Positions 11,708-44,535 of a stretch of DNA of 44,535 nucleotides are shown here, piece after piece. Source of the stretch: a virus; IMG/VR virus record IMGVR_UViG_3300021181_000019, positions 1-44,535 of that record; one strand, 5' to 3'. Every line of letters begins with the position of its first letter. Positions within the stretch are counted from its first letter, which is position 1. The translations under genes were made by a program, and so were the position numbers. The notes below the pieces were generated by a model. It had not been told where the DNA came from and searched no databases. It saw nothing but the letters and a program-made list of their open reading frames with translations.

Positions 11708-11715
11708 TAAGAGTG

Positions 11716-11742
11716 GAGGAGTTCGCCGATAACGGACTCCTC
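11716..11742 (+). promoter_or_regulatory. Leader hairpin before homing endonuclease
   Basis: GAGGAGT (11716-11722) pairs with ACTCCTC (11736-11742) over a 13-base loop, right at the start of the expected transcript. It hides an extra GGAGG. The working ribosome site GGAGGG (11758-11763) lies downstream. A leader hairpin is known to limit translation of I-TevI-type endonucleases; here that role is inferred. Confidence 0.4.
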
Positions 11743-11769
11743 GACTCGCTCTTTATCGGAGGGCAGCAG

Positions 11770-12378
11770 ATGTTCGTTTATCAAATAACCAATAAAGTGA
11801 ACGGAAAGAAGTATATAGGTCAGCACGCAGGCGACAACCTTCTGAGGTATTGGGAGAGCACTGTATATTTTGCGGAGCATGGCTATCAGGGAAAACGCCT
11901 GCTCTATCGAGCAATTCGTAAGTATGGCGCAGACAACTTCGACATTAAACCTCTTGTTATCGTTGGTACGAAACAAGATATGGATTACTACGAACGAGGA
12001 TTGATAAAAGCCTTTAAGACCATGAGTCCTGCCTTTGGCTACAACATCACGGCAGGCGGTGGCGGAAGTTTTGGCGTAGTGCCTAATGAAGAGACTCGCA
12101 ATAAAATGTCACAGTCTCGTACTGGTAAAAAGATGCCAGAGAGTCACCGACGTAAACTTTCTGAGCGCAGTAAAGGAAACAAGTATAGCCTTGGTCGTAA
12201 AATGACTAAGGAAAATTTTGACAAACTAATGGCTGCTCATGTGGGTGCTAAACGCAGCGACGAAGCCAGAAAGCGCATGTCAGAGTCCCACAAGGGCAAG
12301 AAACCATCTGAACAAACGAAACAAAGAATGCGCGAGGCGCAGCAGCGTCGACGCGAAAGGGAAAACAACAATGGTTGA
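11770..12378 (+). mobile_element. GIY-YIG homing endonuclease, free-standing
   Basis: A 202-residue selfish DNA endonuclease that cuts alleles lacking it. ATG 11770 is chosen because GGAGGG lies six bases upstream; a GTG at 11713 lies within the leader hairpin. The GIY-YIG nuclease shows VYQI near residue 3, KYIG at 14-17, an Arg helix near 50, catalytic-type Glu75 in YYERGLI and GYNITAGG at 90-97. The C-terminal half has NUMOD3-like DNA-binding repeats (RNKMSQSRTGKK, RRKLSERSKG, RKRMSESHKGKK). It has its own promoter and splits the capsid gene from the next head gene, overlapping that gene by 8 bases. Confidence 0.9.
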
Positions 12379-21400: not shown

Positions 21401-22128
21401 TGAACGCCTCAAGCTTCGGATTCCCACTAGGCGACCAGTTCGCGAATATCCCGTCATCTGGAGTTTCGGATGCAACGTGGACAGCCTCGACCGCGTATTT
21501 AGCGGTGCTGCAAGCTGGGATAGACAACGCCTTATTCGTTGCCAATGGCTCAACAGGCTGGTATCGCTGCAATCCTCACCAAGTTCCTGGCGCAGGCCAA
21601 GGTCCGCAGCCCGTGTGGAGCCCATTCGCCGCGATCACTGGCGGATGCAAGATGGTTTACACCACAGAGGTTTCACCGGGTATCAAGAAACTGCTCGTGG
21701 GCTCCACGACACCGAATGAGCCAATCCTTGAGCGTAGCCTAACGACGTTCACGGATAACGGAACGGAATACGATGCGTTCTTTGTTATGGGCAGCCTCGT
21801 GCTCGCGTACCCCGGAGAAATTGCGCTGCTCAAGTTTATAGAACTTGATGCGAGTGGGGTGAGTTTTCAGCCCACCATATCATATTTGTTAGATGAGATT
21901 AGTGGTACGTTCACCGCGTTCACTGCACCGCCGGTCTTCGACCCCCCGACGCAATATGGCACAACAGTAACCCCACTGAGTTATTCTCCGAATCGGTATT
22001 ATTTTCTTGGTAACGCCTCTTTGGCCAGATGTCGCCACATGCAAATTATGGTGGACCTAGGTACGACGTCCAACGGAGATGAAATATATAACCTGACCAT
22101 CAACGGTCGAATAATGATTGAGACATGA
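18424..22128 (+). CDS. Large tail nozzle / tail tubular protein B-like
   Basis: A 1234-residue protein with AAAGGAATTTA before ATG 18424. The N-terminus has the nozzle-type landmark GSNVELTNNLTLKRRPGL at about 59-76, and the C-terminal third is a beta-propeller-like region. The middle is swollen by repeated beta modules. Four short units share a D(G/N)-x3-W-x3-G ending (near 325-400, 470-500 and 540-560), and two units share GF-x4-NNG-x-F (near 155 and 660). Such insertions often bind sugars. It should close the tail tube and contact the host. Its stop overlaps the start of a homing endonuclease. Confidence 0.75.
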   Translation: MPSPFHVAGSQPQKQAKYAPLFIDRAFTGLYTQRNPLHDPSDLVTAKFYGGRPDALWMGSNVELTNNLTLKRRPGLIEFSTFNYPSVPLRTFAFELTNGTIQVLVDTGSTGSLAITSVDNASGSTTVYNGTFPNGGSNAYVGLTVQIAGFVTNPGNNGTFVVTASTTTTLTVASSQGIAETHAATAISAGGVYYDEQNGTAILLWSKLPGAGQSYFVAVGGILYVGDGVSNWIYTPGGANGTVWGFGIPAPTVAPTVTITESGSAASGWIASTDFSTMGLVYDTVTGDVFQLQSVNASGTNSTQSGMSANGQPAWNQTPGGTTTDNTITWENRGPIVTWQPLTTYNNSTIGGTFAAPCIIYDPKTETCYVQSTSAASGVSGKTLPNFNPGLGQHTVDGSCVWIVVGSTDLQPWQANHVYGLQHNQNSLNACVELSGLQSGLPTTESGQILYFQDAGSGGTSGSGYTPWGTAAVPANTTIDDGDLIWLSLGSYTWVSGTPYTAWTANGAVFSVVLDTFGNFQVCVQTGVSGGSTPSWTIGGYGTKTTDGTVVWVNVGIAQTWAASTKWYLPPAGFAPPTSSQPYGGASVIDTNVVRDVEFAINSGISGSSEPTWPTGTPGYVDDNGSSFSLSSVSVSGGTATYHGTGLSTLAGKELIIAGFTNAGNNGYFVPLTATGTTFTVATTSQVNESASATASTGLIWFNEGPYSANSLAWQFGFAYSYSYKSRSLLDYYSVDVPGTSAPPIPPGLLAPLPAPTGSLTGDVSSAAPVTQITGSNTGAVITIQGPLSTDPAVDTIVIWRSADSASGGGSMFELTEIPNVQGTAPGTLKGNWSFQDFLPSIPTTINGVQYPGLNELIDAPVDGVFNPPPTGFLPMVYNFGRIWGSVGAVVYFSGGPDTIALGSGNPSATFNTADNFPYLATVIRLVKTSQGLIVFLTDGIDMLLGGPATGTFYDVSLAPGIGLGNYNGLDVYMGEIFFFSSDNQLMLLSPSLNASSFGFPLGDQFANIPSSGVSDATWTASTAYLAVLQAGIDNALFVANGSTGWYRCNPHQVPGAGQGPQPVWSPFAAITGGCKMVYTTEVSPGIKKLLVGSTTPNEPILERSLTTFTDNGTEYDAFFVMGSLVLAYPGEIALLKFIELDASGVSFQPTISYLLDEISGTFTAFTAPPVFDPPTQYGTTVTPLSYSPNRYYFLGNASLARCRHMQIMVDLGTTSNGDEIYNLTINGRIMIET

Positions 22129-22721
22129 GAATACACCGCGTTGTGTATCGTTTTTGGCACAACATGAGCACGCTAGGACGTGTTGGCTATATAGGAAAAG
22201 ATTCATATCACCCACACAGATTTTCCCTGGAGAGAAGGTCCAAAGAGAAAGGGCACCCAAAACTTTATAGGGCTTTAAAGAAATATCCTCTCAAGGTGTG
22301 GTATAAAGAAATCTTAGCTTCGGGGTTTAAGTCCACAAAAGCTTTAAACAGGGCGGAAATTTTTTATATTAAGAAATTCAACTCAAAAGAAAAAGGTTAT
22401 AACCACACGGATGGCGGAGACGGAAATCGAGGTTTAAGCCCGTCAGTTAAGACGAGGGAAAAAATACGTAAGTCTTTGCTTGGTACCGTATCGCCTATGC
22501 GAGGAAAAAAGTACCCACCTGAATTCGGTCGTAAAATTAGTAAAGCAAAAATGGGTAAAAAGATGTCCCCAGAAGGCAGAGCTGCCATAAGCAAGGCAAA
22601 TGTATTCCGAGGAAAACATTTTTCCGAAGAGCACAAAAGAAAAATTAGCGAGGCTTTGAAAGGACGAAAACTTTCTGATGAACACAAAAGAAAGTTAAGT
22701 GAAGCAGCTAAAAATAGATAA
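22125..22721 (+). mobile_element. Second GIY-YIG homing endonuclease
   Basis: A 198-residue free-standing endonuclease that starts at ATG 22125 in an ATGA overlap with the nozzle-type gene, so translation is probably coupled. The nuclease shows VVY at 6-8, GYIG at 21-24, LYRALKKYP near 48, Glu78 in NRAEIFYIKKF and GYNHTDGG at 91-98. The C-terminal part has four NUMOD3-like repeats (REKIRKSLLG, GRKISKAKMGKK, KRKISEALKGRK, KRKLSEAAK). It is AT-rich compared with its neighbours, a sign of separate origin. It has no promoter of its own. Confidence 0.9.
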
Positions 22722-28318: not shown

Positions 28319-31300
28319 ATGGCCGACAAGTCAACCGATCTATCAACGACCAACCAGCCTGCGGGAACCACGAGCATAGACAACGGTATCGCCTACGATA
28401 TCACAGGAAAGGCCCTCGGTCCCGCCAACATGGGTAACGACCAGAGCGCTGTGCCACAGCCCCCGCCTGGGTACGCGGGAGCTCCGACATCAGTCCAGGC
28501 GACATCTGCGCCAACTGCGTCAACTAACAAGGTCCCTCCGCCGCCTCCTGGATACGAGGGCACGCCTACAACGGTTGGGCAAGCTGCGCCGCCACCGCCT
28601 CCTGGCTACGGCGCGCCAGCGACAACGCCGCAACAAGCTGAGCCTGAGAAGAAAGGCCTCGTGCGCAGAGGTTGGGACTGGCTGAACAAGCCAATTCTTG
28701 ACAACATCCTCCCAGAGGGAATGGACACCGCTGAGGTGTTACGCGGCGCTTTGTTCCAGAAGATGTTCAATGAACCTTATATCCCGGGTACTAACGATTT
28801 CAATACCAAAGGCCAAGCTAACCTTAATGACAGTCCGACCAAGGCTGCGGCTAAGAAATTCATAGCGGGCTCCGCGTCAGACGTGGCACCCGTGGGCGCA
28901 GGCTTGACATCACCTCTATCTATCGGGACTTTCGCTGTTGGCGAGGTTGCTCAAGGTGCCCGCGCCGTACAAACACTATCACGCGTTGCCAAGGCATCAG
29001 AAGCCGCAGATGCAGCCGTTGATACCGCCGCAGCCGTGCGGTCAGCTCGGGTAGCCGAAGCGGCCACGAAGACAGCGCAGATAGCTAAAGCAGACCAAGC
29101 ACTTCAGGAAGCGCAAGCCGGACTAGCCACAGGAAAGACAACGCTAGCGGACGCTGCAGCCGCACAGACTTTTAAATCTCAGGTAGTGGCTGACGCCGCA
29201 AAAGCTGAGAAAGCCGCCCAGGAGGCCGCTGAGCTTCATGCCCAGGCCCAAGTTAAAGCAGGACAGACCGCCAGAGAGCTGGTAGAGGCATCCAAGCACG
29301 CTGAGAGATTGTCTGCCCAGTTCGCATCTAATCTGCCTCCTGGGACTGTCACACCATTGGCGGTCACAGGGACCTTGGCATCTAAAGCTGCAGGAGTCGG
29401 CTTCACAGGACAGGCAGCGGTAGGAGCGCTGACACCGCGTCAAGAGAATGAAGCATTCCCAGATTATCTACAACGTGTTCTAGAATCCGCTGGCTTCGCT
29501 GCGCTCGGCGCGCACGCGACAGGTGAAGATATAGCTGGCGTCGCTGAAGCGAGCAAGCACGCGATAGCTGATATCGGAGAATGGTCGAAGAACCGCGCAG
29601 AGGCTAAGCAAGACGCTGCGCAAGATGCGGCCAAGAAGGCGTTCACACAAGCTATCAAATCTGGTCGCGGCAAGACGAACTACACGACCACCGGCGAGGG
29701 CAATGATTACGATAACATGCGTCCGTTCCTCGAAGCCGAGCACAAGATTAATGATATAGGAACGCCGACGCAAGCGCGTAACGCTTTCCAGAATATCTTC
29801 GATAAACTTGAAGACTTGGTTGCGCCGCAGGTCGAGAAATATGGAAATGAAGAGCTCCAGCTCGGTCGGAACACAGATGGGAGTGCGGTTACTGTAAAGC
29901 AGCGCTTGATATCTGAACTGACGCCAGCCAACGAGGTCAACGACCAGTTCCTAGACAAAGCCCTAAAAGCCGTCGAGGGATTCAACACAACGAACCCAAC
30001 GGTCGCCGAGGCCAAGAAGATAAACAAGACGCTGAACTCTATGGTTCGCGACCGCATGACCACCAAGAACAACTGGGATATCCAGACATTGATGGATTCA
30101 GACCCGAAGTTCGCCGCGCTCTACACGCTTAATGATATCATGCGCGACGGTATCCATGAGACGCTGGAGGCCAAGGGCGTCAAAGGCTCTCGTGAGATTC
30201 GTCAGCTGCAAAAATCTGCAGTCAACCTGCGTAATGCCGCCGACGCGCAAATTAAGAACGAAGAGGCTATCCGAAAGGGCACCGAGCCATCTACAGCGAG
30301 AAAGGCGGCTGGCTGGATTGCCAAGAGAGCTATCCAGGGAACGGCTGCGGCAATTGGCGCCGAGTACGGCGGTCCCGTGGGTGCTGGTGCAGCTGAAGCC
30401 ACCGTAGGAGGTCCCGCTGGAGAGGCTGCGCAGAATGCGATAGCGCCAAAAGGCAAGAGCGTTAACCAGTTAATCAAGGAATCGATGCGCGTATCTGGCG
30501 CGGAGATTGGCGACGCCGGTAAACTCGACACAACGAACGCGCAGCCTGGCGCAGAGGCACCACAGCCTCACCCGCGCGAGAACACTGATATGCACTTCTT
30601 GCTAGCCACGCACTACGGCGAGATGGTCGGTGACACCCCGTACAAAGACTTGGAAGATCGCTTCCGTTCAGATGTCAGACTCAAGAAAAACCACGGCGTT
30701 CCCCTAGAGCCCGACGAGAAGAGCTTGCTGATGGACCTCAACAAGGCCGACGTCAAGGAAATAAACGACGCCAAGAAGGCCGCAGAGGATGAAGCGAAAG
30801 AGCAAGCCAAGCTGAATAAGGCTAATGCTGCACAAACGGTCAATCCCGAAGAGGTAGCCGAGAAAGAGCCTGCGAAGGCCGCAAAGGAAGCTGAGGAAGC
30901 TGCGGGCGGTAAGACAGTCCAGTCCGAGCAAGTTCACGCGCTCCCGAGAGACTATGAGATTGAGATTGAGGAAGAGGGACAGGAGCCACACACAGAGTTA
31001 ATCCAAGGACACTCTGCGCGCGAAGCGATAAAGAACGCTACTGAGGAGTACCCTAACTTCAAGCAAGCTAGAATCGTAGGTGATTTCCCCGAGGGGATTC
31101 CTAACGAGAAGCAGCCGTACGCTGTCCCTGCGGGCAAACTGAAGTCTATGCCAGGTTCACTCATAGGTGATGTTGGCAGCCGAATCAAGAACGCTGTTGA
31201 GACCGTTCGACACGAACTAGGTCATATCCTAGTAGGCCACCGCAATGGCATCAACTCTAGTGAGATGATATCGAGCCAGCATCCTGCGGTCAAGGGTGGT

Positions 31301-34300
31301 CTCAATGGTGCCCGTATTCGCGCCGCTGTTTTAACAGATTATAATCCGCTCATGGAGAAAGGTGAATTCACCCGTAAATCCATGGGTGATAAGCTGCCAG
31401 GTTTCTTAGAACAGCTTATGGGCGGAGCCGCTGCGGATGAATTGTTCAGTGGTATAGACCGTAAGGAAAACTCAGGTGCCCGAGGGGACACAAGGTACGC
31501 AAAAAAGGTCTTGACAGAGCACTTCGGCTTCAGCGATAATGAAGCGGAGACTATGATTGACAACGCTATAGACCGCGCCAAGGAAAAGCTCAACCATCCG
31601 GTTACCCGCCAGATGCTTGAGGAGAACGCGCCCTTCCGAGAGGAGGGGCTCGCGAAGACGCACCACTATAGCCCAGAGCGTGTCGAAGCCATGAAGGCCG
31701 AGCACGATAGAAGGATGGCAGAATATGAAAAAGGAAACCCGAATGACCACGGAACAAGCAATGGAGAAGCTGGACCAAGACCTCAAGAAGTGGAGCTCGG
31801 AGGACAAGGCGCAGGTCTCCGAGCAGCTGCGGAAGGAATTGCTCCAACCAAGTACCACCCAGACCTCCAAAAAGTAATCGATCAAAACAAGCTTGTAGGG
31901 AGCTTGCCGATAGGTGCGTCATTCCTGACGCCTGACGGGAAGTTCGTCGACCTGAGTGGAACACACCCCGAGGCCATAGAGAAAGCCACCGGCGAGCCAT
32001 TCAATGATGCTAGTTTGTCGCACAAGATTAAGAACGAAGAACCTGGTGCCGAAGATAACCGCATCAAGTTCATCAATGATACGGGAGCCGTTCGCACGCG
32101 CTTTCGTGACACCATGGCAGGTAAAGAACTGGTCGCATCGGTTCCCGCTAAGGGCATCACGCAAGACCAGCTCGTTGCGTTGCGTCGCGCGATTGGCAAG
32201 GTTGGCCGCGAGGGTAACTTCGCTATCGAGCGCACGGACGCCACGCCAGAGAACAAACTCTACGCTAAGAAAGATTTCCCGCGCGTCTCTGACGTCGACG
32301 ATATGCTGCGCCAGATTCAAGCGCACCCCGACCAGCGCACAGCGAACGCCGAAACGCTCACTGAGCCAAAGGACGTTGCCGAGCACGCAGACGAGTACAA
32401 CCGCTTGCAGGGCCGCCCAACGATAGATACCCAGACGCACCCGCACAACGTTGAATTCGCGAAGCGCACCGCTGACGCTTACGATGCGATGAAGCACGAG
32501 CCTAACAACCCGAAGGTCAAGGCTGCGTACGACGCGATGAAGAACGATGTCGACAAGCAGTGGGACTACGCGACCCAGAAGATGGGGATGAAGCTTGAGC
32601 CATGGACGAAAGAGGGTCAGCCGTACGCTAACTCGAAAGAGATGGCCGCCGATGTCAAGAACAACAAGCACCTCTACTTCTTCCAGGGTGGCGAGAGCCC
32701 GGCGGACAACCCGCTACAAGCTGTAGACCCGAAGACCGGTCTTAGTTACAACGACAAGTTCCGCGCGGTCCACGATCTATTCGGGCACGCCGCGCAAGGC
32801 AACGAGTTCGGTCCTAAGGGCGAGGAGACCGCGTACCAGCTCCACCGCCAGATGTTCAGCCCCGAGGCTGTACCCGCACTGACCACAGAGACCCGTGGGC
32901 AGAACTCTTGGGTTAACTTCGGCGAGCACATGCGCAACCCAGAGGGCAATGTCCCTAAGAAGGGCGAGCCTGGGTTCGTTCCAGCCACCGAGCGTCCGTA
33001 CGCCGAGCAGAAGACCGGCTTGCTGCCAGAGCAGTTCCACGCTGCGGCTCCCGGGCCTAACTGGGCCCACGATGTGGCCGCTAGGCTCCCTGAGGAGTCC
33101 GCAGGCGGTATCAACCCGCAGAACCCTGAGGCGCCAAGTAAGCGCTACGGGTTCGAGATACTCCCTGAGCACCGCCAGCAGCTCGACAAAGCTCCAACTG
33201 CGCAAGACTTCCAGAAGTACGCACAAGACCACGCAGAGCACATCGGGATGCACCCAGACATGCGATTGGGTTGGGATACCGGCGGAGCGAAGCCAGAGCT
33301 TAACATTGGCGCCGCCACGAACGACCTGGCGACCGCAAAGAAGATAGCGGGCAAGCTAGACCAGCGCGCGCTGTGGGACAATGTCAAGAAGGAAGAGGTT
33401 CCGGTGGGTGGCGAGGGTAAGAAGACGGAGTTTCCAGAGTACCCTATAGCCCAGCGCATCGCCGACTTGGCGAAGGCCGAGCCACAGAATCCTGCGCTGA
33501 CCGCACAACCAGAGACGATGACAGAGGCGCGCCCGAAGGGCTCCACGGTCGAGCTCCTAGACAATCCGCTGAAGATTAAGGGCACGGGAGACGAGGGCCG
33601 CGTTAGCACGAACGATGTTGCGCTCGCGCTCCAGAAGTTCAGCAAGAAGCAGAACCCCGCGCTCGTCCTCGGTAAGGCAGAGCCTGCAGAGCAGCTCGAA
33701 CGCGCGAAGGCGATAGCTGAAGACGAAGCTAAGTACCGTCTCGCCGGTGACAACTCTGGCGCTGACTGGTACGTCAAGGACATGCAGAGGCACGACGCTA
33801 TCTTGGAGAAGATGCGCCCAGAGCTTAAAGACCCCGCGAAGTCGAGCCTCTTTAAGTTTGTCGAGGCTATTTTGAGTTCAGGTCAGAAGCCGTACCAGAA
33901 CATCAAGACCGCAGTCAAAGCCTGGGACCACTACACGAAGACAGGTGAGTTCCCTGCAGGCAATCCAGAGACTGGGAAGTCATGGGGCCCGAGAAACGTG
34001 GCGGCTTACGGCAACGCTATGGACATGCTGACCCGCTTGGTTAAAGAGAACGGCGAAGAGGGCGCGGTCCAGTGGATGATGACCGACCATCCGGTATCCG
34101 AGCTCAAGAAGTATAACGACAACGTCAAAGGTAAAAAGACTGACGAAGTCCCTGGCGTCATGATACTAGGCCCGAAGCGCGGCCCGTTCGCGCTTAACCT
34201 GCACGGTCGTGAGGCCGCGTTCACCGCCGATATGTGGGTCAACCGCACCTGGAACCGCTGGATGGGTACGCAGGAGGTCCAGCCAGACGGCGAACTGCGA

Positions 34301-34600
34301 GATGCCCCGCGCAACGACACTGAGCGCCAGTTGATGAAGCAATCGTTCAAAGAGACTGGCGATAAGCTGGGGCTGAGCACGAGCGCTCTCCAGGCTGTGC
34401 TGTGGTACTATGAGCAAGCTCTCTACACCGCGCACGGGGTACCGAAGGAATCTTGGAGCTACTCAGACGGTGCGCAGCGCGTGGCAGACGGAGAGCAGCA
34501 ACAAAGCATGAAGTTCGGAGAGGCACCAGAGGGGACACACATCAACGCTGCGGATTTTATAAATCTAATGAAGAAAGCAAATGAAAGAGGTAAGAAATAA
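28319..34600 (+). CDS. Giant polyvalent internal protein with M41 protease domain
   Basis: A 2093-residue protein. Residues 1-110 hold three PPPGY repeats (near 48, 75 and 93). Residues 190-420 are Ala-rich coiled-coil with a weakly hydrophobic stretch. A zinc protease of FtsH (M41) type follows: HELGH at 965-969, GGAAADELFSG at 1035-1045 and GARGD with Asp1057 as likely third ligand. Further modules are PDGKFVDLSGTHPEAI near 1200, FRAVHDLFGHA near 1482 with ETRGQNSW near 1524, HPDMRLGWD with LNIGAA at 1645-1666, and a helical domain with LGPKRGPFALNL near 1950. From memory, these recur in phage polyvalent proteins injected with DNA. Protection of incoming DNA and cleavage of a host protein are inferred. 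Confidence 0.8.
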   Translation: MADKSTDLSTTNQPAGTTSIDNGIAYDITGKALGPANMGNDQSAVPQPPPGYAGAPTSVQATSAPTASTNKVPPPPPGYEGTPTTVGQAAPPPPPGYGAPATTPQQAEPEKKGLVRRGWDWLNKPILDNILPEGMDTAEVLRGALFQKMFNEPYIPGTNDFNTKGQANLNDSPTKAAAKKFIAGSASDVAPVGAGLTSPLSIGTFAVGEVAQGARAVQTLSRVAKASEAADAAVDTAAAVRSARVAEAATKTAQIAKADQALQEAQAGLATGKTTLADAAAAQTFKSQVVADAAKAEKAAQEAAELHAQAQVKAGQTARELVEASKHAERLSAQFASNLPPGTVTPLAVTGTLASKAAGVGFTGQAAVGALTPRQENEAFPDYLQRVLESAGFAALGAHATGEDIAGVAEASKHAIADIGEWSKNRAEAKQDAAQDAAKKAFTQAIKSGRGKTNYTTTGEGNDYDNMRPFLEAEHKINDIGTPTQARNAFQNIFDKLEDLVAPQVEKYGNEELQLGRNTDGSAVTVKQRLISELTPANEVNDQFLDKALKAVEGFNTTNPTVAEAKKINKTLNSMVRDRMTTKNNWDIQTLMDSDPKFAALYTLNDIMRDGIHETLEAKGVKGSREIRQLQKSAVNLRNAADAQIKNEEAIRKGTEPSTARKAAGWIAKRAIQGTAAAIGAEYGGPVGAGAAEATVGGPAGEAAQNAIAPKGKSVNQLIKESMRVSGAEIGDAGKLDTTNAQPGAEAPQPHPRENTDMHFLLATHYGEMVGDTPYKDLEDRFRSDVRLKKNHGVPLEPDEKSLLMDLNKADVKEINDAKKAAEDEAKEQAKLNKANAAQTVNPEEVAEKEPAKAAKEAEEAAGGKTVQSEQVHALPRDYEIEIEEEGQEPHTELIQGHSAREAIKNATEEYPNFKQARIVGDFPEGIPNEKQPYAVPAGKLKSMPGSLIGDVGSRIKNAVETVRHELGHILVGHRNGINSSEMISSQHPAVKGGLNGARIRAAVLTDYNPLMEKGEFTRKSMGDKLPGFLEQLMGGAAADELFSGIDRKENSGARGDTRYAKKVLTEHFGFSDNEAETMIDNAIDRAKEKLNHPVTRQMLEENAPFREEGLAKTHHYSPERVEAMKAEHDRRMAEYEKGNPNDHGTSNGEAGPRPQEVELGGQGAGLRAAAEGIAPTKYHPDLQKVIDQNKLVGSLPIGASFLTPDGKFVDLSGTHPEAIEKATGEPFNDASLSHKIKNEEPGAEDNRIKFINDTGAVRTRFRDTMAGKELVASVPAKGITQDQLVALRRAIGKVGREGNFAIERTDATPENKLYAKKDFPRVSDVDDMLRQIQAHPDQRTANAETLTEPKDVAEHADEYNRLQGRPTIDTQTHPHNVEFAKRTADAYDAMKHEPNNPKVKAAYDAMKNDVDKQWDYATQKMGMKLEPWTKEGQPYANSKEMAADVKNNKHLYFFQGGESPADNPLQAVDPKTGLSYNDKFRAVHDLFGHAAQGNEFGPKGEETAYQLHRQMFSPEAVPALTTETRGQNSWVNFGEHMRNPEGNVPKKGEPGFVPATERPYAEQKTGLLPEQFHAAAPGPNWAHDVAARLPEESAGGINPQNPEAPSKRYGFEILPEHRQQLDKAPTAQDFQKYAQDHAEHIGMHPDMRLGWDTGGAKPELNIGAATNDLATAKKIAGKLDQRALWDNVKKEEVPVGGEGKKTEFPEYPIAQRIADLAKAEPQNPALTAQPETMTEARPKGSTVELLDNPLKIKGTGDEGRVSTNDVALALQKFSKKQNPALVLGKAEPAEQLERAKAIAEDEAKYRLAGDNSGADWYVKDMQRHDAILEKMRPELKDPAKSSLFKFVEAILSSGQKPYQNIKTAVKAWDHYTKTGEFPAGNPETGKSWGPRNVAAYGNAMDMLTRLVKENGEEGAVQWMMTDHPVSELKKYNDNVKGKKTDEVPGVMILGPKRGPFALNLHGREAAFTADMWVNRTWNRWMGTQEVQPDGELRDAPRNDTERQLMKQSFKETGDKLGLSTSALQAVLWYYEQALYTAHGVPKESWSYSDGAQRVADGEQQQSMKFGEAPEGTHINAADFINLMKKANERGKK

Positions 34601-35928: not shown

Positions 35929-36126
35929 AAACGCTGCTATGCGCTCAAGCAGGACGGCCGCATAGGACTTCATTAACCCGTACTGACGGATTAGACGCTC
36001 TCGTTCTGCCGCTGGTAATGGCGGGAAGGTATTTCCTTCGGTGATGAATTTATACAGCTTTGTCACCTTGTCCGCCAATTCTGCGTGCTCGTTTACTACC
36101 CGTTCTTGATGCGGTGCTAGACTCAT
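35926..36126 (-). CDS. Small helical conserved phage protein
   Basis: A 66-residue protein, start behind GAGGAGGATAAA. It forms a helical hairpin: VNEHAELADKVTKLYKFI, a turn with FPPLPAAE, then ERLIRQYGLMKSY and AAVLLERIAAF. The pattern is familiar from many phage genomes as a 65-70-residue protein of unknown role. It may form a small helical bundle. Confidence 0.72.
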   Translation of the reverse strand: MSLAPHQERVVNEHAELADKVTKLYKFITEGNTFPPLPAAERERLIRQYGLMKSYAAVLLERIAAF

Positions 36127-36160
36127 TTTATCCTCCTCTGTGTTTAGTAACTACCTAAAC
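36127..36160 (-). repeat. Start cassette A, copy 2, with hairpin
   Basis: On the - strand GTTTAG (36160-36155) pairs with CTAAAC (36147-36142), and AGAGGAGG follows. The 5' arm contains the TAG stop of the upstream gene and the 3' arm leads into the ribosome site of the next. It thus joins stop, hairpin and start. Confidence 0.7.
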
Positions 36161-36355
36161 TTTTTTCAGTAAAAGTCGCTTCGTCAAATGATATACTCGG
36201 ACGCCCTCGGAGCCGTAATAAGCAAGAATTTTCTTTCGAGCTATCTTGTCTGTTTTGTATCGCACAAGTTCAACGTCTTCGTAAAATCCTTCGCCAAAGC
36301 CAAGAGAACCGCGTTCTCCTCTTTCAGTTTGGTGAATCACTACATACATTTTCAT
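36155..36355 (-). CDS. Small basic phage protein
   Basis: A 66-residue protein starting MKMYVVIHQ, with GGAGGAAAC before the ATG. It has beta strands at the start (MYVVIHQTERGERG-S) and at GVRVYHLT, around a Lys/Arg-rich helix, and ends RLLLKKV. Two small proteins near 39.3-39.7 kb open in a similar way, so it may belong to the same loose group. No function can be assigned. Confidence 0.65.
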   Translation of the reverse strand: MKMYVVIHQTERGERGSLGFGEGFYEDVELVRYKTDKIARKKILAYYGSEGVRVYHLTKRLLLKKV

Positions 36356-36540
36356 GTTTCCTCCTCTGTGTTTAGTACACTACTACACTCAACGCACTCT
36401 TGATTGAACTCCTGTAAAATCTTTTCGAGAACGATCTTCACCCACGCGTCGCAAGGTTTGAGGTCGTTCTCGTGCTTTTTGATGATTCGTCTCAAAATCT
36501 CTCGATGGTGTTCTGCATCTATATCACTAAATATGCTCAT
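36352..36540 (-). CDS. Small helical protein with two Cys
   Basis: A 62-residue acidic protein behind GAGGAGGAAGC. It is helical (HHREILRRIIKKHENDL, WVKIVLEKILQEFN) with Cys near 30 and a C-x-x-C at about 49-52. Its last nine codons run through start cassette A copy 3, so that repeat is translated as VLNTEEET, and the stop overlaps the next ATG (ATGA). Confidence 0.65.
   Translation of the reverse strand: MSIFSDIDAEHHREILRRIIKKHENDLKPCDAWVKIVLEKILQEFNQECVECSSVLNTEEET
36356..36393 (-). repeat. Start cassette A, copy 3 (translated)
   Basis: The - strand reads GTTGAGTGTAGTAGTGT, then ACTAAACACAG and AGGAGGAAAC before ATG 36355. Unlike copies 1, 2 and 4 it lies inside the upstream reading frame. 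The ribosome site for the next gene is thus also its coding sequence. Confidence 0.68.
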
Positions 36541-39291: not shown

Positions 39292-39322
39292 CGTCCCTCC
39301 AAATCAATGGTCTATTGATTAT
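39292..39322 (-). repeat. Start cassette B, copy 5 (variant)
   Basis: On the - strand AATCAAT (39320-39314 as complement) and ATTGATT (39308-39302) form a 7-pair hairpin with loop AGACC, then GGAGGG before ATG 39291. The 5' arm ends in the TAG stop of the upstream gene. It lacks the TATC of the other B copies. Confidence 0.68.
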
Positions 39323-39515
39323 TCCCTAGAAGTTCTTCGCCCTTCGGCAGCTTTGGAATCTCCGTCCATGTGAGCAAACTGGAGGGAATAGGTCCTGCGA
39401 ATTCTTCGAGTTGTCGGAGAGCATCGGACTGATGGTTTGCTCGAATGTACAGTGTGTCGCCTTGCGCTTCGACTTTGAAGATTTTCATTGTTTCTTTTTG
39501 CTTCGTTTTCTTCAT
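39312..39515 (-). CDS. Small two-strand/helix protein
   Basis: A 67-residue protein. The start at 39515 (MKKTKQKE) lies behind GAGGAGAGAGT; it overlaps the upstream stop (ATGA). A Lys-rich start, IFKVEAQGDTLYIRANH, a helix (SDALRQLEEFAG) and a Pro/Leu end suggest a small beta-alpha protein. The stop lies in the 5' arm of cassette B copy 5. Confidence 0.66.
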   Translation of the reverse strand: MKKTKQKETMKIFKVEAQGDTLYIRANHQSDALRQLEEFAGPIPSSLLTWTEIPKLPKGEELLGNNQ

Positions 39516-39733
39516 ACTCTCTCCTCGATTAATTCGTGGACAGTGAAATAGACATACCATCCGTTGCCTTGGCCGCCGCCAGATTTCGTATCGGCTTTTT
39601 CTTGTTCGAAGTACTTTTCTTTCAGCTTCTCTTGCTGCGCCAACGTTGGTTTGGAGTTAAAATATCCTAAGACTCCTTGGTCGCCGCTTTCGGTGCTCCA
39701 CGTAATCACCCAAATTTTCTTTGCTTTCTTCAT
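39512..39733 (-). CDS. Small protein starting KKIWVITW
   Basis: A 73-residue protein behind CAGGAGGAACG. Strand KIWVITWSTESGDQG-VLGYF leads into a charged helix (TLAQQEKLKEKYFEQEK), a Gly-rich turn, and strand WYVYFTVHELIEERV. The same opening style is seen at 36155-36355 and 38825-39013. It has no function that I recognise. Confidence 0.68.
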   Translation of the reverse strand: MKKAKKIWVITWSTESGDQGVLGYFNSKPTLAQQEKLKEKYFEQEKADTKSGGGQGNGWYVYFTVHELIEERV

Positions 39734-39766
39734 CGTTCCTCCTGATAATCAATATCCCGTTGATTT
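39734..39766 (-). repeat. Start cassette B, copy 1
   Basis: The - strand has AATCAA (39765-39760), then TTGATT (39752-39747), then ATCAGGAGGAACG before ATG 39733. The TGA stop of the upstream gene lies inside the 3' arm. Confidence 0.7.
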
Positions 39767-40048
39767 TGTTTTCTTCAGCCGCCTAAGAATCAATATCCCG
39801 GGAATACCGTCCTTCGATATATAGCCGTGCTCGCTAACAGTATTCTCCCCTGGTTTGCTCACATAGTCCGCAGTAAGGTAAACATGCCCGCTGGTTGCTG
39901 GCATGTATAGCGTGCTGTGTCCTTCTATCTTTTGAACGTCTTCTCCAACCGCCCAAAGATGTTCACTTCGGTCGTGACGAACAAACGTTCCGTCATCCAT
40001 CTTAGCTACGATAACGTCTTCCGTCACGAGAATAATTTTTCCTTGCAT
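39749..40048 (-). CDS. Small beta-rich protein
   Basis: A 99-residue protein. The start at 40048 (MQGKIILVTED) is set by AAGGAGGGCAC; a longer frame would overlap the upstream gene by over 100 bases. Successive strands (GKIILVTEDVIVAKM, TLYMPATSGHVYL) suggest a small beta-barrel; the end is Lys-rich. It overlaps the upstream gene by 25 bases. Confidence 0.66.
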   Translation of the reverse strand: MQGKIILVTEDVIVAKMDDGTFVRHDRSEHLWAVGEDVQKIEGHSTLYMPATSGHVYLTADYVSKPGENTVSEHGYISKDGIPGILILRRLKKTKSTGY

Positions 40049-40752
40049 GTGCCCTCCTTCGTTGGCGCTCCCGGTTGAGCCAGGGCAGCCAAACAACGGG
40101 TATGATACTTGCACAGAGACGCTACCAATCCACAATTTTTGCAGGCGAATCCTTGTATTTCATGCTCCCGCGTCCCCGGCGCTCCTTGGGCGGGAGGGGC
40201 AGCCAGTGCCTTGCCGACTTCCTCTATCCACTTGTCTCGGCACGCCATCGCGTTCTTGGCGTCACCTACGCCGCGCTCATATTCTTCTTTCAGTTGCTGC
40301 TCATGGCGGAGACCGAAGCCGTCGATTTCGTGAGCCTTGCGCACAATGTAGCCGCCAAGGTGACGCAGCCAAGCGCCCCGCCAAAGCCGAAACTGGAATC
40401 GCTCCAAGCGAAGTTCCTCATTCAGCCGGATAATTTCTCGCTCCAGTTCGTTGACCAATCCAGTCGGCGGCGTGCGCCCCGGCTCCCCGACGGGGGCAGC
40501 GGTAACGCCATTCGCTTCATCCACTGCTTCATTGATGCGCGATTGCAAGGCATCATCCTTCCATGCTGCCTGCGGCGACGCGACAGACGGAGTAGCGAGC
40601 GCCGCCTGCCAACCCTCCCAGTGTTTCTGTGTATAGAGATCAAAATAACCCTCACCAGAACGTTCAATCAGTCCGAAGGGCTGCGTCTGCTTCCTTGTCC
40701 CTAGAATCCACCTTTCAAACGTCGTCCGCATCTCACTCGTCGTCATGCCCAT
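40024..40752 (-). CDS. Phage protein with FERW/W-x-x-W-AA start and Cys-rich end
   Basis: A 242-residue protein with GGAGGAATT before ATG 40752. The first 55 residues (TTFERWILG, GYFDLYTQKHWEGWQAAL) match a short domain seen in many unrelated phage proteins. A helical region with NELEREIIRLNEELRLERFQ follows, and a late CKNCGLVASLCKYHTRC could hold zinc. Its function is unknown. Confidence 0.68.
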   Translation of the reverse strand: MGMTTSEMRTTFERWILGTRKQTQPFGLIERSGEGYFDLYTQKHWEGWQAALATPSVASPQAAWKDDALQSRINEAVDEANGVTAAPVGEPGRTPPTGLVNELEREIIRLNEELRLERFQFRLWRGAWLRHLGGYIVRKAHEIDGFGLRHEQQLKEEYERGVGDAKNAMACRDKWIEEVGKALAAPPAQGAPGTREHEIQGFACKNCGLVASLCKYHTRCLAALAQPGAPTKEGTCKEKLFS

Positions 40753-40783
40753 AATTCCTCCTGATAATCAATTGGTTGATTTT
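40753..40783 (-). repeat. Start cassette B, copy 2
   Basis: The - strand has AATCAA (40781-40776), loop CCAA overlap, TTGATT (40771-40766), then ATCAGGAGGAATT before ATG 40752. Its 5' arm also forms one side of the outer stem of the tRNA-like element upstream, so the two structures could compete. Confidence 0.68.
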
Positions 40784-40890
40784 CCATCTTAGAGCCAATC
40801 CGACGTTCACCCATAGAACTCTTCGGGCCGTCCGACCCGTGTAGGATTCGAACCTACCTCTTCCGGATTGGTTCTAAAACGGAAAATCAA
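40776..40890 (-). ncRNA. tRNA-like four-way junction, possible permuted tRNA
   Basis: The gap 40753-40921 has no gene. On the - strand, GGAAAATCAA pairs with TTGATTTTCC (40881-40890, 40776-40785). Inside, 5-base loops lead to a 12-pair stem (40864-40875 with 40791-40802, one G.T). The junction carries GTAGG-TTCGAAT-CCTAC (40857-40841), a perfect T-arm. Next is a capped stem CGGGTC-GGAC-GGCCCG (40839-40824), then GTTC-TATGGGT-GAAC (40819-40805), a D-arm-like hairpin with GGG. Taking TCGGA/TCCGG as anticodon stem gives a 5-base variable loop (AAGAG) and T32-T33. So the 3' tRNA half comes before the 5' half. Weak points: no CCA, odd D-loop bases, acceptor A.A pair. Confidence 0.5.
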
Positions 40891-40921
40891 TCGACTACTA
40901 TAATTAATGCTTACTCGATTA

Positions 40922-41134
40922 TTACATATCCCATTCTATGATACCAGCCGAAGATGCTTGTATAGGGTCTTTCGTAGCATTCCAGGCTCCCACGAAAGAC
41001 TCTAGCCACTCCGTAAACATTCCCAATTTAAGAGCATGTTTGGCATCCGTCTCGAACCTCAAAGCCAGTTTTCGGTTTTCTTCATCGTCTTCGAATGTCA
41101 TCAGATTTTCTATCGGCAATCCTGCACTTGGCAT
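40922..41134 (-). CDS. Small acidic helical protein
   Basis: A 70-residue protein behind CAGGAGGAACA. It is acidic at the start (FEDDEENRKLALRFETDAKHAL) and helical in the middle (FTEWLESFVGAWNATKD). No motif is recognised. The tRNA-like element begins about 30 bases after its stop. Confidence 0.66.
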   Translation of the reverse strand: MPSAGLPIENLMTFEDDEENRKLALRFETDAKHALKLGMFTEWLESFVGAWNATKDPIQASSAGIIEWDM

Positions 41135-41168
41135 TGTTCCTCCTGATAATCAATTGGCTCTTGATTAT
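41135..41168 (-). repeat. Start cassette B, copy 3 (best hairpin)
   Basis: The - strand has TAATCAA (41167-41161), a 7-base loop, then TTGATTA (41153-41147) and TCAGGAGGAACA before ATG 41134. The TAA of the first arm is the stop of the upstream gene. All seven pairs are perfect. Confidence 0.72.
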
Positions 41169-41431
41169 TTCTTTTCCCACTTTATGCCTTGAGTGTCGAG
41201 AAGCGCTTTGGCACTTTTTGTGATAGGCTCGTTTGAGTCAAACAAAGATGTGAGTAGAGTTTGGAGCAAGCCGAGAGCGTGTTTAGGGCACAGATCGAAG
41301 CACGCATACCAGTGATCGGAGCCGTTACCACTAGCGTCGCGGGTCGATTCAAGATAAGCAGTCAGATTCGCTTCACCTATCCTCTCGTTTTTGCATCCAG
41401 TTCTATCACAGTAAAATTTTTCTATTTTCAC
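41165..41431 (-). CDS. Small protein with zinc-type Cys/His
   Basis: An 88-residue protein that starts at GTG 41431 behind CAGGAGGAAAC. FYCDRTGCKN near residue 6 and DLCPKHALG near 47 give C-x4-C and C-x2-H, a likely zinc site of the type common in small phage proteins. The rest is helical. Its stop lies in cassette B copy 3. Confidence 0.68.
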   Translation of the reverse strand: MKIEKFYCDRTGCKNERIGEANLTAYLESTRDASGNGSDHWYACFDLCPKHALGLLQTLLTSLFDSNEPITKSAKALLDTQGIKWEKK

Positions 41432-41462
41432 GTTTCCTCCTGATAATCAACTGCTTATTGGT
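41432..41462 (-). repeat. Start cassette B, copy 4
   Basis: The - strand shows GTTGATTATCAGGAGGAAAC before GTG 41431. The 5' arm (CCAATAAGCA) is only partly complementary, so the hairpin is imperfect. The TAA in it is the stop of the upstream gene. Confidence 0.62.
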
Positions 41463-44077: not shown

Positions 44078-44535
44078 TTATTTTCCGATATTTGTGAACA
44101 TATGAATGAAGAGACCGTACTGTTCGATCTCTTCTTTCGTGTAGCCCTCGGCGCGGCCTATCGCCTTGTAGTGCTCCTGCCAGTACTCGAACGTGTGTTC
44201 GTGGCAGCCTATCGCGATGTGGCCGTGCCTGGAGTTCGTGAGCGAGTGTCGCGTGCCTTGGATGTACAAGGGTGATTGCTCCCACGCGTTGCCGGACACC
44301 TGCGCGTTGCCGGACACCTGCGCGTCGCCGGACACCAGCGCGTCGCCGGACACCAGCGCGTCGCCGTACACCTGCGCGTCGCCGGACACCTGCGCGTCGC
44401 CGGACACCTGCGCGTTGCCGGACACCAGCGCGTTGCCGTACACCTGCGCGTTGCCGGACACCAGCGCGTTGCCGTACACCTGCGCGTTGCCGTACACCTG
44501 CGCGTTGCCGGACACCCGCGCGTTGCCGTACACCC
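44078..44535 (-). CDS. Hexapeptide-repeat protein, N-terminus outside window
   Basis: A partial protein of at least 152 residues. In the visible part, 14 hexapeptides of form V(Y/S)G(N/D)A(Q/L/R/W) make a left-handed beta-helix. The C-terminal 68 residues are a separate domain (SPLYIQGTRHSLT, HIAIGCHEHTFEYWQEHY, YTKEEIEQYGLF) found, from memory, in similar phage proteins. The apparent start at the edge is a Val codon inside a repeat, so the true start is beyond 44535. Confidence 0.72.
   Translation of the reverse strand, partial: VYGNARVSGNAQVYGNAQVYGNALVSGNAQVYGNALVSGNAQVSGDAQVSGDAQVYGDALVSGDALVSGDAQVSGNAQVSGNAWEQSPLYIQGTRHSLTNSRHGHIAIGCHEHTFEYWQEHYKAIGRAEGYTKEEIEQYGLFIHMFTNIGK
44281..44535 (-). 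repeat. 18-base tandem repeats encoding the beta-helix
   Basis: Fourteen near-identical 18-base units lie head to tail and continue past the window edge. They differ only at a few codon positions (Tyr/Ser, Asn/Asp, Gln/Leu). Such tracts can gain or lose units by slippage, and assemblies often mis-count them. Confidence 0.85.

What the first reader, a model, noticed from the sequence alone, without database searches (positions are those of the whole stretch)
40776..40890. A tRNA turned inside out: possible circularly permuted tRNA gene
Seen: on the - strand a perfect T-arm is followed by a stem closed with a GGAC tetraloop and then a D-arm-like hairpin. The whole is enclosed by a 12-pair stem and a 10-pair outer stem with 5-base internal loops between. 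Read as a tRNA, the 3' half precedes the 5' half, the acceptor ends are joined and the anticodon side is open, as in permuted tRNA genes of some algae and archaea. The canonical 5-base variable loop falls in the right place. I know of no such gene in a phage. Alternatives are a tRNA-mimic RNA, a leftover attachment site or a regulatory leader.
Basis: partly seen in the sequence, partly recalled or inferred. Interest (0 to 1): 0.82.

Follow-up and report, generated by a model that had tools for sequence, protein, structure and literature searches.

The report
Phage Y-RNA-like permuted tRNA mimic
A phage genome carries a short RNA gene shaped like a tRNA cut open at the anticodon and sewn shut at the other end, which makes it most likely an unusual relative of the bacterial 'Y RNAs' that imitate tRNAs rather than a working, rearranged tRNA gene.

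Summary
On the minus strand, 40776-40890 folds into a 27-pair stem topped by a T-arm, an acceptor-like hairpin closed by GGAC, and a D-arm (MFE -55.9 kcal/mol, z -5.65). The "5-base internal loops" actually pair. Rotated, ARAGORN calls it a tRNA; shuffles never do, even with the T-arm kept.

That topology defines bacterial Y RNAs (YrlA), which are permuted tRNA mimics. YrlA is the best of 4227 Rfam families (full length, 21.3 bits, below the 69-bit cut-off, which Rsr-linked phage Y RNAs also miss). A model built from 23 Y-like domains scores it 31.0 bits (E 5.8e-10). Portal-sharing relatives of this phage carry an Rsr (Ro60) gene preceded by classic Y RNAs; one (G027) is 96% identical to the window across the gene just upstream, but its contig ends before the element.

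A decoding tRNA is unlikely: the anticodon region is duplex, with no BHB motif or anticodon loop. Nor is it a textbook Y RNA: the Rsr-linked stem motifs, U8, A14, A21 and C48 are missing, and no Rsr lies in this partial record. I file it as a divergent Y-RNA-like tRNA mimic, probably Rsr-independent. Expression and function are untested.

The parts
40776..40890 (-). whole Y-RNA-like / permuted tRNA-like RNA element
   Evidence: fold z -5.65; Rfam YrlA full-length best hit, 21.3 bits; R1 31.0 bits for its domain
40863..40890 (-). 5' arm of the long stem (18 pairs, A mismatch, 9 pairs); its last 5 nt TCCGG sit where the 3' strand of an anticodon stem would be
40858..40862 (-). 5-nt 'variable loop' AAGAG
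   Evidence: sequence; position as in R1
40841..40857 (-). perfect T-arm GTAGG-TTCGAAT-CCTAC
   Evidence: Rfam tRNA model 13.6 bits on these 17 nt only
40824..40840 (-). acceptor-like stem closed on itself: A-CGGGTC-GGAC-GGCCCG
   Evidence: pair probability 0.92-0.98
40805..40819 (-). D-arm-like hairpin GTTC-TATGGGT-GAAC (GG kept; A14, A21 not)
   Evidence: pair probability 0.97-0.98; comparison with A1
40776..40803 (-). 3' arm of the long stem; first 5 nt TCGGA sit where the 5' strand of an anticodon stem would be
40753..40775 (-). leader of the next gene, TTGATTATCAGGAGGAA, repeated before three neighbouring genes; the stem's 3' end (GGAAAATCAA) uses the 5' arm of this leader hairpin
   Evidence: repeats D3-D5; leaders listed
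40922..41134 (-). gene just upstream (70 aa); 96% identical DNA in the Rsr-carrying relative G027, whose contig ends inside it
40024..40752 (-). gene just downstream (242 aa, no Pfam family)

Best explanation
It is a phage-encoded, divergent Y-RNA-like RNA: a stable rod of about 27 base pairs capped by a circularly permuted tRNA mimic (T-arm, self-closed acceptor stem, D-arm). Shown: sequence, predicted topology, placement between two early-region genes, similarity to Y-RNA models, and Rsr plus Y RNAs in related phages. Inferred: it is transcribed with the minus-strand operon (no promoter stands out), its long duplex is cut (RNase III type) or trimmed to release a ~115-nt RNA, and the tRNA-like elbow then binds host proteins that recognise tRNA T/D arms, as YrlA's module does for TruB, DusA and PNPase. 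The stem lacks the motifs common in Rsr-linked Y RNAs and Rsr was not found, so I think it most likely acts without Rsr, as a tRNA-mimic tether or decoy.
For: YrlA is the best of 4227 Rfam families and aligns end to end (1-114, 21.3 bits). R1, built from 23 Y-like domains with strong covariation (score 0.694 against 0.21 in shuffles), finds it full length at 31.0 bits, E 5.8e-10. Rsr-linked Y RNAs in viral contigs mostly score 27-48 bits with Rfam, and two in this phage group only 12.7 and 17.1, so 21.3 is within their range. Thirteen of 20 records with Y-like RNAs carry a TROVE gene. Portal-sharing relatives G027, G028 and G031 carry TROVE with Y RNAs directly upstream. G027 shares 96% identical DNA with the window up to the gene before the element. 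Relatives G035 and G036 hold further permuted tRNA-like elements outside tRNA genes, and G037 and G042 hold G036-like ones. Y RNA architecture and the TruB/DusA/PNPase roles: PMC8394870.
Against: The Rfam score is below the 69-bit cut-off. Tandem tRNA genes also score 20-49 bits with R1, so score alone is not decisive; the case rests on topology. TTACTTC-like and GCGUAGA/GCGAAGG-like stem motifs of most Rsr-linked Y RNAs are absent, as are U8, A14, A21 and C48 (against the window). No ortholog of this exact element was found, so its own pairs have no covariation evidence. No Rsr in the 44.5-kb record. No expression data.
Confidence: 0.7

Rival explanations
1. A real circularly permuted tRNA gene: the RNA is cut in the long stem, the ends are ligated at the anticodon and the GGAC loop is opened to make a functional tRNA.
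For: After rotation ARAGORN calls a tRNA for every join, shuffles never. The phage group has large tRNA clusters.
Against: The anticodon loop positions are base-paired within a 9-bp helix; no BHB motif; 4 nt between acceptor ends leaves little for RNase P/tRNase Z; U8, A14, A21 and C48 absent; 17/23 Y-like domains pass the same rotation test. Permuted tRNA maturation is known in some algae and archaea (own knowledge).
Confidence: 0.05
2. A cis-regulatory leader: the tRNA-like fold and stem control translation or decay of the 242-aa gene, for example through a tRNA-binding protein or by competing with the leader hairpin next to the ribosome-binding site.
For: It ends about 13 nt before the ribosome-binding site; its 3' arm uses the 5' arm of a leader hairpin repeated before neighbouring genes; no own promoter or terminator stands out.
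Against: Neighbouring genes have the same leader without the element; a complete permuted tRNA fold is not needed for such control; similar elements in relatives lie in tRNA clusters or before Rsr.
Confidence: 0.15
3. A canonical Rsr-bound Y RNA whose Rsr gene lies in the missing part of this genome.
For: The record is a fragment; portal relatives reach 77-119 kb and three carry TROVE; G027 is 96% identical next to the element; one Rsr-linked Y RNA (L614) also lacks the stem motif.
Against: The usual Rsr-linked stem motifs are missing (13/19 TROVE-linked RNAs have a TTACTTC-like motif, 2/11 others, window not); in relatives the Y RNAs sit directly before Rsr, here they do not.
Confidence: 0.1

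Closest known systems
YrlA, bacterial Y RNA (Rfam RF02553; Salmonella YrlA, PDB 6CU1 as cited in PMC8394870)
   Same: T-arm, self-closed acceptor stem and D-arm in permuted order on a stem formed by the two ends; full-length match to the model
   Different: 21.3 bits against a 69-bit cut-off; nearly uninterrupted stem without the usual Rsr-linked motifs; U8, A14, A21, C48 missing; no rsr gene in the record
Y RNAs beside Rsr in related phages G027, G028, G031 (this survey)
   Same: permuted domain in G027 and G028; same phage group by portal protein; near-identical neighbouring gene in G027
   Different: they carry CCGUAGA...GUUACUUC and a CGCUUGUCG-type 3' arm and lie directly upstream of Rsr
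Permuted tRNA-like elements in tRNA clusters of relatives G035, G036, G037, G042 (this survey)
   Same: permuted T-arm, acceptor, D-arm order on a short proximal stem; no Rsr found in these records
   Different: only a 5-6-bp proximal stem; G036, G037, G042 share a 5' hairpin and GGCGGAAGAG; located among tRNA genes
Permuted tRNA genes of Cyanidioschyzon and some archaea (own knowledge)
   Same: 3' half precedes 5' half
   Different: those have an anticodon loop at a BHB splice site and a removable intervening sequence; this has neither

Membership tests
YrlA / bacterial Y RNA | permuted tRNA-like module: T-arm, closed acceptor stem, D-arm | tested here: met
YrlA / bacterial Y RNA | 5' and 3' ends paired into a long stem | tested here: met
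   27 pairs with one mismatch
YrlA / bacterial Y RNA | Rfam gathering score (69 bits) | tested here: not met
   21.3 bits; none of the 22 records searched reaches it either, though 13 of them carry TROVE
YrlA / bacterial Y RNA | tRNA core nucleotides U8/A9, A14, G18G19, A21, C48 | tested here: not met
   only A9 and GG kept; U8, A9, A14, G18G19 and A21 are invariant columns of A1
YrlA / bacterial Y RNA | stem motifs associated with Rsr | tested here: not met
   motif defined after the fact and not universal
YrlA / bacterial Y RNA | rsr (TROVE) gene in the same genome | tested here: inconclusive
   none in 44.5 kb, but the record is about half a genome
YrlA / bacterial Y RNA | binding of Rsr, PNPase, TruB or DusA | not testable with these tools
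   needs biochemistry
Circularly permuted tRNA gene | tRNA fold after rotation | tested here: met
   ARAGORN, 8 of 8 joins; shuffles 0/600
Circularly permuted tRNA gene | 7-nt anticodon loop with U33 at the open end | tested here: not met
   positions are in a continuous helix
Circularly permuted tRNA gene | bulge-helix-bulge splice site | tested here: not met
   18 pairs, 1x1 mismatch, 9 pairs; no 3-nt bulges around a 4-bp helix
Circularly permuted tRNA gene | processed, ligated product | not testable with these tools
   needs RNA-seq of infected cells

The most novel reading that the evidence does not exclude
Phages of this tRNA-rich group carry a family of permuted tRNA-like RNAs (window, G035, G036, G037, G042) that act without Rsr, for example as decoys for host tRNA-cleaving defence enzymes or as handles for tRNA-modifying enzymes or PNPase; a minority might even be matured into tRNAs.
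Probability: 0.3. Interest if true: 0.75.

Novelty: new variant of a known kind. Interest (0 to 1): 0.5.

Why it matters
Y RNAs are known almost entirely as partners of Ro60/Rsr. A phage RNA that keeps the permuted tRNA module but not the usual Rsr-linked stem would suggest that the module has uses of its own, in phages that also carry large tRNA sets, RNase P-like RNA or Rsr. Those are settings where tRNA damage and repair are part of the fight with the host. The survey also shows that Rfam's YrlA cut-off misses the phage Y RNAs examined, so they are under-annotated.

Tried and rejected
An exact T-arm scan of viral contigs found only ordinary tRNAs. Broad T-arm/D-arm patterns mostly hit tandem tRNAs, so a fold filter and tRNA overlap were needed. 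The terminase search gave only a near-identical 15-kb contig that does not cover the element. BLAST of the region against GenBank phages found nothing. A distant relative of the downstream gene (G038) has no element before it. The leader pattern scan led to G027 but its contig stops just short. The MAFFT alignment of clade members (A2) was mis-gapped, so I drew no covariation from it. Rejected: coding sequence (no ORF of 50 aa or more covers it), attachment site (no integrase among the 20 proteins scanned with Pfam), miRNA and other weak Rfam hits. Key Y RNA papers (Chen 2014, Sim 2018, Wang 2018) were not held; their content is taken from citing papers or own knowledge.

Full report
Observation. 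Folding 40770-40896 gives -55.9 kcal/mol against -33.8 +/- 3.9 for 200 dinucleotide shuffles (z -5.65, none as low), with pair probabilities close to 1 for nearly all pairs. The claimed 5-base internal loops pair with two G-U wobbles, so the stem is 18 + 9 pairs around one A/C mismatch. The element fills most of the 169-nt gap between ORFs 40922-41134 and 40024-40752, and no listed ORF covers it.

First identification. ARAGORN finds no tRNA there, and Rfam's tRNA model matches only the T-arm (13.6 bits). The best of all 4227 Rfam families is YrlA, the bacterial Y RNA, aligned over its whole length: 21.3 bits, E 0.018 for 191 nt, cut-off 69. YrlA is a permuted tRNA mimic: T-arm, acceptor and D-arm on a stem made by the two ends, modified by DusA and TruB, tethering Rsr to PNPase (PMC8394870). 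Y RNAs have been reported in mycobacteriophages (Chen 2014, cited in PMC12282133), and an Rsr-like protein in a Vibrio jumbo phage (PMC7765460).

Rotation test. Joining the D half to the T half with any 7-nt loop drawn from the sequence gives a tRNA call every time (8/8). Control: 17 of 23 Y-like domains are also called after rotation; 0 of 300 full shuffles and 0 of 300 shuffles that keep the T-arm are called. So the tRNA-like geometry is real, but the test cannot tell a permuted tRNA from a Y RNA.

Reference set. Pattern scans of viral and genome contigs, followed by fold and tRNA-overlap filters, gave about 20-25 Y-like RNAs in viral contigs plus some in bacterial genomes. Thirteen of 20 records with such RNAs carry a TROVE gene, many within about 1 kb, and three more of nine checked later. 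All miss the Rfam cut-off, so that cut-off is not informative for phage members. Model R1, from 23 domains, has strong covariation (score 0.694 against 0.21 shuffled and 0.10-0.16 slid). The set was chosen partly by fold, so this leans towards the structure; it includes the G036 element but not the window.

Window against R1. The element is hit full length at 31.0 bits, E 5.8e-10. Tandem tRNAs also score 20-49 bits, so the score alone does not prove membership. What separates the element is that no tRNA gene overlaps it. A geometry-only scan of 1.81 Mb of this phage group returns six places, three free of tRNA genes: the window element, one in G036 and one in G035. Random Markov DNA (12 Mb, both strands) gives none; given the window T-arm, 0.26% of random flanks pass. 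With hundreds of T-arms in the group, one or two chance hits of the bare geometry are possible, so the G035 element is only a candidate; the window's 27-pair stem lies far outside that null.

Relatives. The portal protein finds 75 contigs, several of 77-119 kb, so this 44.5-kb record is about half a genome. Three of 32 relatives searched encode TROVE (G027, G028, G031), each with Y-type RNAs just upstream carrying CCGUAGA...UUACUUC-type motifs. G027 is 96% identical to the window over 40956-41169, the gene immediately before the element, and shares its leader, but its contig ends inside that gene. G036, G037 and G042 carry homologous permuted tRNA-like elements in their tRNA clusters with a shared 5' hairpin whose stem changes compensatorily (CCTGC/GCAGG to CCTAC/GTAGG) and a shared GGCGGAAGAG; in G037 the acceptor part is unclear. 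The window's T half also resembles the G037 element (88% over 25 nt, E 0.0096), but T-arms of ordinary tRNAs match as well.

What is missing. The domain alignment has invariant U8, A9, A14, G18, G19 and A21; the window keeps A9 and the GG only, and lacks the GGUC that most have before the T-arm. TTACTTC-like stem motifs are found in 13/19 TROVE-linked RNAs and 2/11 others (Fisher p 0.02, motif chosen after the fact) and not in the window. No TROVE in the window record. No promoter or terminator above chance.

Judgement. Topology, family scores and the company it keeps place the element with Y-RNA-type tRNA mimics; missing core nucleotides, missing Rsr-linked motifs and the long duplex make it a divergent variant, probably Rsr-independent. 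A decoding permuted tRNA is unlikely. Function is inferred. The most likely use is as a tRNA-mimic tether or decoy released from the operon; PMC7790460 raised the idea that YrlA's tRNA-like domain could inhibit an anticodon nuclease. A cis-regulatory role in the 242-aa gene's leader is the main rival.

Noticed in passing
L494:84-413 (minus strand; portal relative G036): RNase P class A RNA-like match, 81.2 bits (cut-off 100), beside a tRNA cluster and the permuted tRNA-like element: a phage that may carry its own RNase P RNA.
   Followed up: no
L613:8629-8905 and 1822-2187 (viral contig): RNase P class A RNA (187.7 bits) and tmRNA (132.1 bits) among many tRNA genes in a contig classed as viral.
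   Followed up: no
L489:about 1120-1345 (relative G031): Before Rsr: a short Y-like RNA without a tRNA module and a second Y-type RNA whose insert looks like a tRNA in normal, not permuted, order.
   Followed up: partly
L529, L527, L494 (G042, G037, G036): Conserved 5' hairpin with GGCGGAAGAG next to a permuted tRNA-like domain inside tRNA clusters; a possible new small RNA family of these phages.
   Followed up: partly
window 39302-41457, minus strand: Leader hairpins ending TTGATTATCAGGAGGAA repeated before several early-region genes; a second repeated leader (CACTAAACACAGAGGAGGA) before genes at 36126-36540.
   Followed up: partly
window 11713-12378 and 22125-22721: Homing-endonuclease-like genes (GIY-YIG/NUMOD3 and NUMOD3) next to structural genes.
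   Followed up: no
window 44231-44534: 11 overlapping copies of an 18-bp tandem repeat coding for an SGNAQVYGNA-type repeat protein that runs off the record.
   Followed up: no
L008:1-1861: Tightly packed tRNA cluster left of the window in a near-identical phage; some tRNAs are unusual, for example a tRNA-Trp with A8 and U14.
   Followed up: no
window 28319-34600: 2093-aa ORF with no Pfam match.
   Followed up: no
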